Below are positions 47,552 through 54,465 of a DNA stretch of 54,465 nucleotides, one piece after another. This DNA is from Paludibacteraceae bacterium (GTDB lineage Bacteria > Bacteroidota > Bacteroidia > Bacteroidales > Paludibacteraceae). A program made the position numbers and the translations under genes. The DNA lies in contig JAKSNP010000011.1 in the NCBI GenBank assembly GCA_024399655.1, positions 1-54,465 on the forward strand. Reading direction: 5' to 3'. The first letter of the stretch is position 1, and every line of letters begins with the position of its first letter. The notes below the pieces were generated by a model. It saw only the letters and a program-made list of their open reading frames with translations, did not search any database and was not told the DNA's origin.

Positions 47552-47818
47552 TTGGCATATAGGTGATTTTGCAGTCTGCATCTTGAATTGATAAAGTGCA
47601 TTAGGAACGGTATTGTGGAAGGGTGTTTTTATTGACAAAAGGATAAATAATTACACAAAGGTGTCTGACACCTTTATGTAAAACAAGGGTTAAATGATTG
47701 AATACAAAAGGATAAGCGGGTTAGCAAAAAGGGAATCGATAATGCAGAAAAATATAGGGAAGGGAAAGAAAAAATGGAATATGCAAGAATAGAAGTTATT
47801 TTTACAAAAAACAAGAAA
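47552..47818. other. Non-coding gap with a 31-nt palindrome
   Basis: About 267 A-rich nt without a gene. The only clear structure is the palindrome at 47651-47681. Confidence 0.6.
47651..47681. repeat. 31-nt near-perfect palindrome
   Basis: TTACA-C-AAAGGTGTC-T-GACACCTTT-A-TGTAA, two 15-nt arms with one mismatch around a single central T. The AAAGGTGTCTGACACCTTT core resembles short REP-type palindromes seen in many genomes. There is no T-run, so it is not a terminator. Confidence 0.75.
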
Positions 47819-47842
47819 CAGGCAACCCTCACGGGCTGCCTG
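47800..47842 (-). terminator. Terminator of the 135-residue membrane protein gene
   Basis: CAGGCA-A-CCC-TCAC-GGG-C-TGCCTG (47819-47842) followed on the minus strand by TTTCTTGTTTTTTG. It begins 2 nt past the stop codon at 47845. Confidence 0.78.
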
Positions 47843-47844
47843 CT

Positions 47845-48252
47845 TTACTTTATGAACCTAATCATAAATCTTACTATAGAAAGAATGAATATAATTATCA
47901 AGATGGCGACGCACCATTTGTAGAAAGCGGGCACGTACTTCCGGGGCGGATGTTCGATAACCCTTTCGATGTTCTGATAGATAGTGTCGTGAATTTCTTT
48001 TTGTTGCGCCTTGTCGACGGTATGCCATCTGTCGCGAGTGATATAAACCGTATCACCAGCCAAGTATTGGTGTATGTAGATACTATCGTGCTTGTAGAGA
48101 TAGACGCTATCGTGTTGGATATGCGTCTCTACGGAATCACGTTGCATGACTACTTGTTGTGAACGGCAACTGCTGCATAAAAGGCAGAGCAGCAGTATAA
48201 ACAGGATTATTACGGCAAGGCAAACGATAGATCGTCCTTTACTTGTTAGCAT
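47845..48252 (-). CDS. Spanin-like small membrane protein (phage lysis-type)
   Basis: 135 residues. An N-terminal hydrophobic segment (9-28) ends LLCSSC, a plausible lipobox. The middle is polar with repeated HDSVY/HDSIY units (about 45-65) and RDRW, IHDTIYQNIERV, likely an elongated coiled or beta region. A C-terminal transmembrane helix (about 113-131) follows PPRKYVPAFYKW. This layout recalls small proteins with DSxY repeats that accompany lysozyme-like genes in Bacteroidetes prophages. No homologue is certain; function as spanin or holin partner is inference. Confidence 0.6.
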   Translation of the reverse strand: MLTSKGRSIVCLAVIILFILLLCLLCSSCRSQQVVMQRDSVETHIQHDSVYLYKHDSIYIHQYLAGDTVYITRDRWHTVDKAQQKEIHDTIYQNIERVIEHPPRKYVPAFYKWCVAILIIIFILSIVRFMIRFIK

Positions 48253-50558: not shown

Positions 50559-51773
50559 TCAATTATCCCGTTGTACCACAACAGCGTTGGGATTCTGCTG
50601 CTTAACGAGGTCGCCCCGTTTCTTAAATATATCAACTTCAACCCATTGTTTTTTCTCGGTATCAGAAATTACCCGATCACGGCAAGAAAGGATATACACT
50701 CTTTCGGGCGCAATACCCGCTTGCATGATGAGTTTTTGTATTTGTCGGACGCATTGAGCAGAAGCTAGCGAACCGACGTTGTTGCGTGGCAGGATAGCAT
50801 ATCCGTGGAGTCCGATAGTGAGGGTGGTATCTTTTTTCATGCGATAGATAACCTTTTTGATATCTTCGTTAGCTACTTCGCAGGGGCATTGGTCGTCGGA
50901 CCTGTTGTAGGACATGTTAAGAACAAGCGAGTCGATTTTGATCATTTCGGCCATTTCGGCCTGTGTCATCCAGATGGTGTCGGAATAGAATCGCACGATG
51001 GTGTCGGTAAGATAAACGGTATCTTGCGGAACCATCCAATTTTGTTTGGCCAATTTCTTGTTTTGTCTGCTTTGAGCTGAAGAGCATGAGGGGAATGAAA
51101 TAGCTATACCGGCATTGGCGGCTACCTGGAAGAATTTGGGAGAAGAACCACCTATGACGTTTTCGCGTCCGAGTCCGAGAGCGAGTTTCTCGTCAGCTGA
51201 AGCTTTGATAATGAACTTGAAATAGTTGGTGACACGTAGGTCGAATTGCAGTCCGACCTGAGCCGACATACCCCAAGGTGCATCGACAGAAGCGAGGTCG
51301 ACGGCATTAAGTCGATAATAATCGGCATGCAGTCCGGCAAAGAGATAGAATGCGAACCATTTGCCCCGTCTTTCGGGTCGATATTCATCGAGCGGCGAGT
51401 AATAGACAACGGGACCGAACGACAGGTTCATGACATCGTCGAAGAGGTCGGACCCGGGTCGGATAAGACGGTTGTAGATATTGGTTTCGGGATTATAAAT
51501 AACGTCGATACCGAATTTGACAGCGGGTGAGAAGAGGTAGTTGAGTCCGACATTGACCCACATATCACGTGTAAGCGACCGGTTGAGCGTAGAAGATTTG
51601 TCGGCGAGTGACATGAGGTTGTAGCCGACGGTGCCATAGAGTTCGAGAGCATTAGAGTTTTGTAGATTGAACTGCGGATTGTCTTTCCCGCCGTAGTTGG
51701 GTCGATGCGTTTCCTGTGGGAAGAGCGCGACCGAAAGCAGCATAGCCGCCAATAATAAATAAAATTTCTTCAT
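50559..51773 (-). CDS. Outer-membrane beta-barrel protein with degenerate OmpA-like domain
   Basis: 404 residues. Signal peptide (1-19). Residues about 40-230 form a beta-barrel of the OmpW/OprF-like size with ALELYGTVGYNLMSLADKS, FGIDVIYNPETNIYN, FGPVVYYSPLDEY and GLHADYYRLNAV. A Thr/Asp-rich linker with DTVYLTDTIVRFYSDTIW (about 250-270) leads to a C-terminal domain (about 300-390) with LTIGLHGYAILPRNNVGSLASAQCVRQIQKLI and GIAPERVYILSCRD, which follows the OmpA peptidoglycan-binding pattern but lacks the Asp and Arg that bind diaminopimelate. Paralogue of the next gene; separated by 44 nt and probably cotranscribed. Confidence 0.75.
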   Translation of the reverse strand: MKKFYLLLAAMLLSVALFPQETHRPNYGGKDNPQFNLQNSNALELYGTVGYNLMSLADKSSTLNRSLTRDMWVNVGLNYLFSPAVKFGIDVIYNPETNIYNRLIRPGSDLFDDVMNLSFGPVVYYSPLDEYRPERRGKWFAFYLFAGLHADYYRLNAVDLASVDAPWGMSAQVGLQFDLRVTNYFKFIIKASADEKLALGLGRENVIGGSSPKFFQVAANAGIAISFPSCSSAQSRQNKKLAKQNWMVPQDTVYLTDTIVRFYSDTIWMTQAEMAEMIKIDSLVLNMSYNRSDDQCPCEVANEDIKKVIYRMKKDTTLTIGLHGYAILPRNNVGSLASAQCVRQIQKLIMQAGIAPERVYILSCRDRVISDTEKKQWVEVDIFKKRGDLVKQQNPNAVVVQRDN

Positions 51774-51817
51774 ATCAGAGTCTGTTGATTAGTATAAGCC
51801 AAAAAAGAGGTAAGATA

Positions 51818-52582
51818 TCAATAGGGTTGGTTGCCCAATTGTCGTTTATTTTTGAGATAATAATAGTTGCCTCTTCTTTCGAATTGCCTTTTTTGAATAA
51901 CGGCTTTGCAGGGGAAAGTGACGCAGAAGCCGGCGTTGAAAGCGATTTGGAAGGAGATAGGAGCGTTGCCTGTGGATTCATCAATACGGTAAAGTCCGAG
52001 AGCGAGTTTCTCGTCGTAGGTAGTACGTATATAGAAGCGGCAGTATTCGACGAGTTTGGCATCGAATTGGAGTCCGAGCACGACCGACATACCCCACGGT
52101 TGTTTGATTTTTTCGCGTTCGTTGCCATAGAGTTTGTAGTAGTCAGCTCGGAGTCCTCCGACAATCCAGAAGTCGAACCAATCGAAGTCGCGCAGCGGGA
52201 GAAACTGGTTGAGCGGGGAATAATAGGCGAGAGGACCGAACGACCAAGAGCGTACGCGTCTGAACTTGGCTGCATCGGATTTGACGGTGCCGTCGTAGAC
52301 GGTGGTTTTGGGATTGAACAAGACGTCGATTCCGACCTTGACGCAAGGAAGGATTTTGTAGTTGGCACCGGCATTGAGCCAAAGATCGCGGCTACGAATC
52401 TTACGATTGTCGACGGTAAGCGAATAATCGGCCATAGACATAAATCCGTAGCAGGCAGACGCATACAGTTCGACAGCAGATGTGGAATGATCAGCAGTAA
52501 GAGAGAACGCCGGTTTGTAGGTTCTGGCCTCAAGCACAGCCGCCATCAGCAGCAAGACGGAACAAAGATAGATTTTACGCAT
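51818..52582 (-). CDS. Outer-membrane beta-barrel protein, paralogue
   Basis: 254 residues from ATG 52582 (MRKIYLCSVLLLMAAVLEA); earlier in-frame codons begin with a GTG inside a stem-loop and are rejected. Signal peptide 1-19, then a barrel that aligns along its length with residues 40-230 of the downstream protein (AVELYASACYGFMSMADYS, KVGIDVLFNPKTTVYDG, FGPLAYYSPLNQF, LRADYYKLYG, DEKLALGL). It lacks the linker and OmpA-like part and ends in a basic tail. Its own leader carries the stem-loop at 52633-52662. The function is unknown; the pair suggests tandem duplication. Confidence 0.72.
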   Translation of the reverse strand: MRKIYLCSVLLLMAAVLEARTYKPAFSLTADHSTSAVELYASACYGFMSMADYSLTVDNRKIRSRDLWLNAGANYKILPCVKVGIDVLFNPKTTVYDGTVKSDAAKFRRVRSWSFGPLAYYSPLNQFLPLRDFDWFDFWIVGGLRADYYKLYGNEREKIKQPWGMSVVLGLQFDAKLVEYCRFYIRTTYDEKLALGLYRIDESTGNAPISFQIAFNAGFCVTFPCKAVIQKRQFERRGNYYYLKNKRQLGNQPY

Positions 52583-52632
52583 GATAAAAATTTGGTTATT
52601 TACCCTAAAAAGGGGGCAGATTAGGTAGGAAA

Positions 52633-52662
52633 CCACTGTCTATTCTCCCGAACCGACAGTGG
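52633..52662 (-). other. Stem-loop 1 with shared loop
   Basis: CCACTGTC (52633-52640), loop TATTCTCCCGAACC, GACAGTGG (52655-52662): a perfect 8-bp stem. On the minus strand it lies about 50 nt upstream of the barrel gene start and reads CCACTGTC-GGTTCGGGAGAATA-GACAGTGG. Confidence 0.8.
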
Positions 52663-53030
52663 CGGTTTTAAAAATTGAACAAATAAAAATGAGTTAGTAT
52701 ACTATCAAAAGCAGGATAGCCGTAAACGTATTGAATTCATCGTACAGAAGGGAAGCGGTAGGACCGGACTTCTAAAGATTCCGCATAAAAAGAGGGGGAT
52801 TCCTCATCCAGACACAAAATACACCCAAGAAATTTTGTTAAACGTTTAATTATCCAGGTTGCCACAAACAGGTAAGTTCAGAAAAAAACTCCAAAAATTG
52901 AACACTAGCCAATAATTATCAAAACTCCCTATCAAGGATAAACAAGCGATTCATTATCCGAACCATAAATCCCTTATCATCCATTGAGGCGCCCCGAAAA
53001 AGGAATCCCCTTCTTTAGAGTAGGAATAAA

Positions 53031-53060
53031 GTATAGCCTATTCTCACGAACCAGCTATAC
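53031..53060 (-). other. Stem-loop 2 with shared loop
   Basis: GTATAGC (53031-53037), C, loop TATTCTCACGAACC, A, GCTATAC (53054-53060): a perfect 7-bp stem plus one mismatch. The loop matches stem-loop 1 at 13 of 14 positions although the stems differ in every register. Confidence 0.8.
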
Positions 53061-53211
53061 GCGTGTTGTGTGAATATAATTATAAAAAAACCTTAAATGA
53101 AACGACTTCTGCGCGCTCGCAGCAAGCGTTTCTTCTTTCGATAAAATGAAAACCCTTAAAAAAGGATATTTATCTCAACATTACAACAAGAAGTCCTTAT
53201 ACCAACACCCA

Positions 53212-53616
53212 TCAATTATTGTTTTCCAATTTGGATTTATTTTTTCTTCGTTTGATTTCCTTGAAAGCGACATAGGCGAGCGCCATGAGCACCAGCGGAA
53301 TGATATCGTCGCCGACGGGGGTCATATAGGGATCCTGCGGATCATAGCCGGGATTGAGTTCGCTATCAGGATCGGCGATTGCCCTATCAGGTCCGGAGGA
53401 GAAAGGCAGACCGTCGGCGGATTGGTAGTCGATATCAGCCATACCGGAGGTGGAATGCCAGGGTATGGCCGTGTTGTAGTCGGGCACATAATCCGCACCG
53501 GTCGGGAAAACGGTACCCTGATAGTCGGTGACCCATCCGGCATTCATATTGTCGGCCATAGCGCCTGCTACCCCGAAGGATAGCAGGATCACTATAATAG
53601 ATTGAATTTTTTTCAT
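53212..53616 (-). CDS. Small exported protein with C-terminal membrane tail
   Basis: 134 residues: a signal peptide (1-21), an acidic, Pro/Asp/Gly-rich extracytoplasmic segment (22-100, MNAGWVTDYQGTVFP...DPQDPYMTPVGDD), then IIPLVLMALAYVAFKEI (about 103-119) and a basic end (KRRKNKSKLENNN). Helix followed by Arg/Lys cluster is the tripartite form of C-terminal sorting signals or simple tail anchors. The start overlaps the stop of the large surface protein by 4 nt, so translation is coupled. The function is unknown. Confidence 0.7.
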   Translation of the reverse strand: MKKIQSIIVILLSFGVAGAMADNMNAGWVTDYQGTVFPTGADYVPDYNTAIPWHSTSGMADIDYQSADGLPFSSGPDRAIADPDSELNPGYDPQDPYMTPVGDDIIPLVLMALAYVAFKEIKRRKNKSKLENNN

Positions 53617-54465
53617 TTCAAGATTTCCTTTCTTACTTGATTATCGGTAACAATGATATAAACACCGGGTTGCAGTTGCATAGCGGGTTGGTTGAGATCA
53701 GCGACTTTAATACCGAGTACGGTGTAGATACCGGGTTGCATCGCAGCGAACTTACCGAGGTCATCCTGATCGACATCCGAGATATCGGTAGGTGTTTGCG
53801 GCATGCGGCTGACTACGGCATTGATAGCGAATCTGGAGTCGTCGTGCAAGGAAGCGGGCGTGAACGAATAGTCGTCGGTAAGCAGTTCGGTGACGATACC
53901 GGTGGCATAGTCGATGAGTGAAACGGATTGGAAGTCGCAGGCAGCCTGCGTACGATGTCTGAGTGAGAACGTCTTGTTGCCCATCGATTTAGCCTTGTAT
54001 CCGACAGGAATGAGCTGTTGCGCGGCATAGACGGGATCGATAGCCATGAATGCGAGCATCATATTATCATCCAGTGTATAGACGCACAGTTGTTCGTTAC
54101 CTCCGATGAGTTTGGCGAGGTCGGCGTTGTATTCGTATTCGGTAGTGAAGGATTGAGAGATAAGCAGTCCGGTGACATCCGCTCCGAGGGAGTCGGAGAG
54201 GGCGATATCGAGTGTAACTTCCTCGTTGTCGTTTTGGACGAAGGCGGGCAAATCGGCGGGCGATTGATCGATATCGAAGATGAGTTTACCTTCTCCGGTA
54301 GATTGGATGAAATAGGAGTTGAAAGGCAGTAGTACGGCATCTTCGGTTCGGCATTGCGTATAGTCGCTAAATCCGTCAAGAGCGAGGGTGAGGTAGCGCA
54401 TCGGTCCGCTCCAGTCGTAGGTTCCGTTCCACTTGCCCTCTTCGTCGAGGTGCTTGACGAGCATA
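53613..54465 (-). CDS. Large surface/secreted protein, C-terminal part (runs off the window)
   Basis: At least 283 residues; the frame is open to the window edge, so the N-terminus is missing. The visible part is beta-rich (YLTLALDGFSDYTQCR, FNSYFIQSTGEGKLIF, LCVYTLDDNMMLAFMAI). The end reads GIYTVLGIKVADLN...LQPGVYIIVTDNQVRKEILK, which resembles the G-xYxxxGxxV...LxPGxYxxxxxxxxxKxxxK form of C-terminal sorting domains in Bacteroidetes (type IX secretion-like). Coupled with the small tail-anchored gene through a 4-nt overlap. Secretion route is inference. Confidence 0.75.
   Translation of the reverse strand, partial: MLVKHLDEEGKWNGTYDWSGPMRYLTLALDGFSDYTQCRTEDAVLLPFNSYFIQSTGEGKLIFDIDQSPADLPAFVQNDNEEVTLDIALSDSLGADVTGLLISQSFTTEYEYNADLAKLIGGNEQLCVYTLDDNMMLAFMAIDPVYAAQQLIPVGYKAKSMGNKTFSLRHRTQAACDFQSVSLIDYATGIVTELLTDDYSFTPASLHDDSRFAINAVVSRMPQTPTDISDVDQDDLGKFAAMQPGIYTVLGIKVADLNQPAMQLQPGVYIIVTDNQVRKEILK

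What the first reader, a model, noticed from the sequence alone, without database searches (positions are those of the whole stretch)
52633..53060. Two stem-loops with the same loop but different, self-complementary stems
Seen: CCACTGTC-TATTCTCCCGAACC-GACAGTGG and GTATAGC-c-TATTCTCACGAACC-a-GCTATAC, 398 nt apart. The loops agree at 13 of 14 bases while the stems share no sequence yet each pairs with itself. That is the footprint of selection for structure with a recognised loop, not of simple duplication. Flanks are loosely similar too (AGATTAGGTAGGAAA versus AGAGTAGGAATAAA upstream on the plus strand). Possible roles: protein-bound RNA hairpins in leaders of surface-protein genes, small RNAs, or folded-strand DNA recombination sites. 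The first lies in the leader of the 51818-52582 gene.
Basis: partly seen in the sequence, partly recalled or inferred. Interest (0 to 1): 0.72.

Follow-up and report, generated by a model that had tools for sequence, protein, structure and literature searches.

The report
RNA hairpins sharing a conserved cap
Two small RNA hairpins in a herbivore-gut type bacterium share the same tip on unrelated stems; they belong to a family of hairpins, mostly at the ends of transcripts and including members of a known small-RNA family, whose preserved tip is not yet explained.

Summary
The likely RNA strand is minus, the strand of the genes beside it. There each hairpin is an 8-bp variable stem, a G/A mismatch and a cap GUUC-GNGA-GAAU with a GNRA-type tetraloop. 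Searching 178 genomes of the genus for the loop alone, 5 of 29 copies outside this genome sit on self-pairing stems of 7-13 bp with other sequences. Covariance model R2 matches 102 of 178 genomes, own included, 1-6 copies each. The full cap occurs in 12 of 27 best hits in the order, 1 of 25 in the rest of the phylum. 44 of 70 distinct genus hairpins end in a strong U-run. FopS-family sRNA loci have GNGA(N) loops in 25 of 26 cases, generic terminators in 3 of 182. Best reading: terminator-type 3'-end hairpins with a lineage-specific cap; why the cap is kept is open. H1 and H2 have weak U-tracts and are not FopS RNAs, so whether they terminate, attenuate or stabilise is undecided.

The parts
52633..52662 (-). 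Hairpin H1: CCACUGUC / GACAGUGG stem, G/A mismatch, cap GUUC-GGGA-GAAU
   Evidence: 38.6 bits with model R3, of which it is a training member
53031..53060 (-). Hairpin H2: GUAUAGCU / GGCUAUAC stem (innermost pair U-G), G/A mismatch, cap GUUC-GUGA-GAAU
   Evidence: 43.3 bits with model R3, of which it is a training member
52641..52654 (-). Conserved apical part of H1 (GGTTCGGGAGAATA)
53039..53052 (-). Conserved apical part of H2 (GGTTCGTGAGAATA)
52621..52632 (-). Weak U-tract and shared tail after H1 (TTTCCTACCTAA)
   Evidence: 4 T in the best 8
53016..53030 (-). Weak U-tract and shared tail after H2 (TTTATTCCTACTCTA)
   Evidence: 5 T in the best 8
47810..47845 (-). Third capped hairpin of the window (GCCC-GUGA-GGGU, without the mismatch), starting at the last base of the stop codon of ORF 47845-48252
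   Evidence: (29.9 bits, E 1.8e-5), fold
51818..52582 (-). 254-aa ORF whose ATG lies 50 nt after H1; H1 is in its leader or ends a transcript before it
   Evidence: no Pfam or NCBIfam match; two paralogues in this genome, none in 36 congeners
53212..53616 (-). 134-aa ORF whose stop lies 151 nt before H2; a relative in G007 is also followed by a capped hairpin
   Evidence: L014, E 4.4e-6; L109
52663..53030 (-). Stretch without a likely gene between H2 and H1, within a strongly folding region
   Evidence: fold of 52560-53211, z -3.95 from 20 shuffles

Best explanation
H1 and H2 are 3'-end (intrinsic-terminator-type) RNA hairpins on the minus strand that carry a cap conserved in Bacteroidales: Y-N-G(C/U)UC-GNGA-GA(G/A)U-(A/C)-G. 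The stem may vary as long as it pairs; the cap (GNRA-type tetraloop on a short helix, usually with a G-U pair at its base and a mismatch below) is kept. H2 most likely ends the 53613-53212 gene pair, or a small RNA from its 3' UTR. H1 ends a transcript of the 370-nt stretch between them, or is an attenuator or stabilising hairpin in the leader of the 51818-52582 gene. Shown by computation: structure, strand, a kept cap with changing stems, and presence at the predicted ends of FopS-family loci. Inferred: that H1 and H2 define transcript ends. Unknown: why the cap is kept and what, if anything, reads it.
For: Loop-only search, no stem asked for: 5 of 29 copies outside this genome have 7-13 contiguous flanking pairs on other stems, the other 24 have 0-4; about 0.03 expected if arms were random, G-U counted (my estimate). 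Model R2: 102 of 178 genus genomes at E<=0.05, own included. In 74 distinct rows 98.3% of cells pair, 236 cells changed on both sides, slid controls 27-47% (rows were chosen by a model with this structure and lean to it). Tails: 44 of 70 distinct genus hairpins have >=6 T in 8, against 14 of 70 just 5' of the same hairpins and 130 of 5000 random 12-mers (the model contains a tail, so this leans too). 27 of 70 only 3' of a same-strand ORF, 15 between two, 14 intergenic, 9 leader only, 5 inside ORFs. Cap variants end FopS matches above Rfam's gathering score in L148/L253 (one locus) and L260; caps with the G-U base end sub-threshold FopS matches in L085 (same place as L057), L087, L096. FopS seed loci, chosen without the hairpin: 25 of 26 complete exact-seed loci have a GNGA(N) loop, against 3 of 182 generic terminators by the same rule. 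Wobble pairs, sense vs other strand: 39 vs 1 in 74 genus rows, outermost and cap-base pairs left out (model-chosen rows).
Against: The U-tracts of H1 and H2 are weak (4 and 5 T in 8) and the terminator scan did not report them. No Rfam family reaches its gathering score there, and the FopS seed was not found in this 75%-complete genome. No convincing promoter. 5 of 70 genus hits lie inside ORFs and may be false. H1 cannot be compared with orthologues: no relative of its gene outside this genome in 36 congeners or in the genome- and viral-contig scans, which reach close relatives only. R3 also scores plain terminators, so its raw counts (143 of 393 in the order, 111 of 395 in the phylum sample) overstate the spread of the cap. 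Among best hits of the order the full cap is 12 of 27, not all.
Confidence: 0.68

Rival explanations
1. Ordinary intrinsic terminators whose loop happens to be a stable GNRA tetraloop; the cap recurs only because it folds fast and is stable, and nothing recognises it. (Shares the terminator part with the best explanation; differs on why the cap is kept.)
For: GNRA loops are stable (recalled); GAAA was the commonest loop among generic terminators (5 of 182); R3 finds terminator-like hairpins through the phylum; the cap also occurs at what looks like a plain gene end (window 47810-47845).
Against: The genus's 182 generic terminators have mixed loops; 2 have a C-GNGA(N)-G cap, 3 pass the rule that 25 of 26 FopS seed loci pass. 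The weak G-U pair at the cap base is kept in 61 of 74 rows, which stability would not ask for. Full cap 12 of 27 in the order, 1 of 25 in the rest of the phylum.
Confidence: 0.4
2. H1 is a leader element (attenuator or protein-binding hairpin) that controls the 254-aa gene, and H2 its duplicate upstream.
For: H1 ends 50 nt before the ATG; the tails of H1 and H2 resemble each other; L090 has a capped hairpin without a U-run in the leader of a gene with InlB-type repeats.
Against: Leader-only position is 9 of 70 in the genus; no such hairpin was seen before the gene's two paralogues (44-nt gap; locus L008).
Confidence: 0.2
3. DNA element read as a folded single strand: recombinase, transposon-end (REP/IS200-like) or replication-origin hairpin.
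For: Some copies follow DUF5906 genes (L082, L290), which I recall as mobile-element proteins, or other long ORFs without a Pfam match (L086, L151); GTAG occurs 5' of both hairpins on the plus strand.
Against: Wobble pairs lie on one strand (39 vs 1), U-runs follow on the same strand, members end predicted sRNAs, and the stem, which such enzymes usually read (recalled), is the variable part.
Confidence: 0.04

Closest known systems
FopS sRNAs of Bacteroidetes (Rfam RF04319; PMC11697453)
   Same: [quoted passage not shown] in this genus that hairpin has a GNGA(N) loop in 25 of 26 loci looked at, and sub-threshold members L085, L087, L096 carry the cap with its G-U base.
   Different: H1 and H2 lack the FopS 5' seed and do not match the family.
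GibS (RF04182) and BTnc231 (RF04180) sRNAs
   Same: The Rfam consensus lines show GCUU-GUGAU-AAGU and CUUC-GUGA-GAAG hairpins, the same kind of apex.
   Different: Only sub-threshold matches here (H2 to BTnc231: 21.4 bits against a gathering score of 80.4).
Intrinsic (Rho-independent) terminators with stable tetraloops
   Same: Hairpin, usually followed by a U-run, often 3' of genes.
   Different: Fixed apex with G-U pair and mismatch below a GNGA loop; weak U-tract in H1 and H2.

Membership tests
Intrinsic terminator | Stable hairpin on the transcribed strand | tested here: met
   z -5.3 and -4.1 (transcription itself inferred from the neighbouring ORFs)
Intrinsic terminator | U-tract directly after the stem | tested here: inconclusive
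   weak in H1 and H2 (4 and 5 T in 8), strong in 44 of 70 genus hairpins
Intrinsic terminator | Transcription ends there | not testable with these tools
   no RNA data
FopS sRNA (RF04319) | 5' seed UUUUUCAUGGUAUUAGAU | tested here: not met
   0 matches with up to 2 mismatches in this (75%-complete) genome
FopS sRNA (RF04319) | Rfam gathering score | tested here: not met
   no FopS match at H1 or H2 up to E 10
Cis-regulatory leader element | Kept in leaders of orthologous genes | tested here: inconclusive
   no orthologue of the 254-aa gene found
REP / folded-DNA recombination site | Stem sequence conserved among copies, no strand bias of wobble pairs | tested here: not met
   stems differ, wobble pairs one-stranded

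The most novel reading that the evidence does not exclude
The cap is a recognition tag: Bacteroidales, which as far as I recall lack the classical sRNA chaperone Hfq, mark the 3' ends of small RNAs and selected 3' UTRs with a GNGA cap that a dedicated RNA-binding or end-protecting protein reads, so that any stem will do as long as the cap is right.
Probability: 0.2. Interest if true: 0.72.

Novelty: new variant of a known kind. Interest (0 to 1): 0.42.

Why it matters
Small-RNA biology in Bacteroidales is young and few protein partners are known. A short 3'-end cap kept while stems change gives a sequence handle to find unannotated small RNAs and 3' ends in uncultured gut bacteria, and a precise, testable candidate site for an RNA-binding protein.

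Tried and rejected
Exact loop search in 60 relatives: 3 hits outside this genome, in other families of the order, none on a stem. Loop sequence alone is weakly enriched: 31 matches in 178 genomes against 21 for the reversed control by my hand count of the table; only the stems make it significant. Model R1 from two sequences gave 6 weak matches in 5 congeneric genomes; L052 and L048 break pairs, and L052 looks false. Rfam at gathering level: three tRNAs in the window, nothing else. Relatives of the H1 gene in genome and viral contigs: none. Loop pattern in viral contigs: 11 stretches, not followed up. A regex for RRM (RbpB-like) proteins over 1.23 Mb of stretches printed nothing; a crude test. 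Promoter scans: nothing convincing. Pfam on L082, L086, L151, L290: DUF5906 in L082 and L290 only. NCBIfam on four window proteins: no match near a cut-off. Phylum-wide R3 counts cannot be read as spread of the cap: the 26 loci outside the order that I aligned, those fetched for the best hits, have mixed loops.

Rows dropped before counts: L169 fell under the score limit of A6; 3 of 30 fetched seed loci have an inexact seed (L252, L255, L256) and one exact locus (L237) is cut off by the end of its stretch; L255 shows no such hairpin in the stretch printed. In A7 and A8, 2 and 6 rows are the opposite strand of a hairpin already counted; with them the full cap is 12 of 29 and 1 of 31.

Paper searches for a described cap; none found in what I saw. 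Seen: section 8 and passages of PMC11697453; passages of PMC7366714, PMC10994844, PMC8040213; the other papers only as listing.

Full report
The window is contig 3 of a 1.41-Mb, 75%-complete genome. By one protein its closest named relatives are Paludibacteraceae / Bacteroidales metagenome genomes, many from rumen and other animal guts by their titles (best 80 of 174 relatives, 69-78% identity). The likely genes beside the finding (53613-54464, 53212-53616, 51818-52582, 50559-51773) are on the minus strand (ORF positions, hardly any with a known family).

Observation. H1 (52633-52662) and H2 (53031-53060) are as described. In 200 dinucleotide shuffles no pair of hairpins shared more than 11 of 14 loop bases, against 13 here. 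On the minus strand both fold as one helix of 8 + 4 pairs with a single mismatch and a tetraloop, GGGA or GUGA. The one difference between the caps is the N of GNRA. H2's innermost stem pair is a U-G on that strand and would be a C/A mismatch on the other.

Relatives, without asking for a stem. GGYTCGNGAGARTA in the 178 held genomes of the genus gives 31 matches, 2 of them H1 and H2. By hand count the reversed control gives 21, so the sequence alone is hardly enriched. But 5 of the other 29 copies (L057, L058, L062, L070, L077) lie between arms with 7 to 13 contiguous pairs; the other 24 have 0 to 4. L058 and L062 look like one kind of locus. With random arms about 0.03 would be expected (my estimate, (6/16)^7 per copy). 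Their stems differ from H1 and H2 and, L058/L062 apart, from each other. This is the main test free of model bias.

Relatives by covariance model. R1, from H1 and H2 only, matched 6 of 121 genomes, own included. R2, from seven hairpins, matched 102 of 178 at E<=0.05, own included. Alignment A6 (90 hairpins) has 74 distinct rows: 98.3% of cells paired, 11 of 12 pairs with changes on both sides, 236 such cells; sliding one arm drops pairing to 27-47%. The G-U pair at the cap base is kept in 61 of 74. These rows were picked by a model with this structure, so the figures lean to it. Leaving out the outermost and cap-base pairs, wobble pairs are 39 on the sense strand and 1 on the other; in the order set 10 and 0 (same caveat).

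The own genome has five R3 hits at E<=0.001: H1, H2, 47810-47845 in the window, C8:7099-7134 and C9:98099-98134. The last follows a DUF5906 gene, as does the hairpin of L082 in a congener; the gene before the C8 one has no Pfam match.

What the hairpins are. Of 70 distinct genus hairpins 44 have at least 6 T in 8 after the stem, against 14 of 70 just before it and 130 of 5000 random 12-mers; 23 of 28 in the order set, 2 of 28 just before it. By ORFs of at least 80 aa within 200 nt, 27 lie only 3' of a same-strand ORF, 15 between two, 14 intergenic, 9 only in leaders, 5 inside ORFs. So they are mainly terminator-type. They are not the usual terminators of the genus: in 1.23 Mb of stretches 182 terminator-like hairpins have mixed loops, 2 with a C-GNGA(N)-G cap. 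The A-tail control gave 51 structures, so part of the 182 is noise.

Link to small RNAs. T5..CAT within 60 nt upstream: 13 of 70 genus hairpins, 5 of 28 order hairpins, 0 of 182 generic terminators. Rfam's FopS model passes its gathering score at L148/L253 (one locus, cap GCUC-GUGA-GAGC) and L260 (GCCU-GUGA-AGGU), and at L236 and L238, whose hairpins have plain GNGA loops; L085, L087 and L096, which carry the cap with its G-U base, and L275 stay below it. Searching the FopS seed instead of the hairpin: 165 of 178 genomes have it with up to two mismatches, the own genome none (the reversed control gives some matches too, 0 to 2 per genome and strand). Of 27 exact-seed loci among the 30 fetched, 26 are complete; 25 have a GNGA or GNGAN loop by rule, against 3 of 182 generic terminators by the same rule. 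The 26th, L260, is missed by the rule because of its G-U pair. These loci are related to each other, so the p-value printed overstates. [quoted passage not shown]), which speaks against RbpB as reader of the cap. I saw no mention of a shared cap in what I read.

Range. R3 matches 143 of 393 genomes of the order at E<=0.001 and 111 of 395 of the phylum sample, so it also detects plain terminators. Cap letters decide: among the best loci aligned, sense strand, distinct, the full cap is in 12 of 27 in the order (other genera) and 1 of 25 in the rest of the phylum (p 7e-4); any closed GNGA(N) loop 24 and 8. In A6 it is 49 of 74, which its model favours.

H1 and H2 themselves. Weak U-tracts (4 and 5 T in 8), no Rfam family, no clear promoter. 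H2 lies 151 nt after the stop of the 53212 ORF; in G007 a relative of that protein is also followed by a capped hairpin (L014/L109), and L116 has similar DNA before its hairpin. H1 lies 50 nt before the ATG of a gene for which I found no relative outside this genome. The region folds strongly. I think H2 is a 3' end and H1 either a 3' end or an attenuator.

Verdict. A real but infrequent kind of RNA 3'-end hairpin with a kept cap in Bacteroidales; a variant of known terminators and of sRNA 3' ends. What the cap is for is the open question.

Noticed in passing
window 53212-53616: 134-aa protein with a hydrophobic, basic C-terminal tail; weak relatives, matching mostly in the C-terminal half, in 17 of 37 genomes, own included. 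Suggests a sorting signal; no NCBIfam family.
   Followed up: partly
window 50559-52582 and G000:C10:29727-30437: Three paralogous proteins, one with a weak outer-membrane beta-barrel match, present in this genome and in none of 36 congeners.
   Followed up: partly
window 52663-53030: Stretch without a likely gene and with a possible long-range helix (GAAGGGGAUUCC with GGAAUCCCCCUC, by eye) in a strongly folding region.
   Followed up: no
L092, L093, L095, L097, L098, L101 (hairpin region): An unannotated small-RNA-like unit, acaaaaggaattttttcatactcgg plus capped hairpin, in six congeneric loci, in at least five after the same gene.
   Followed up: no
L091, L094, L100 (hairpin region): A second small-RNA-like unit, agaggttttttcatgtaattgtaagtatttgg (with small differences) plus capped hairpin, with TACCTTTGCA upstream.
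   Followed up: no
L273, L277, L281, L285, L289 (hairpin region): In other Bacteroidales, a related unit with CATAA or similar, then TTAGTAGTT.TAAATGTTAGTAATGTG in most, plus capped hairpin; no Rfam family at E 0.05.
   Followed up: partly
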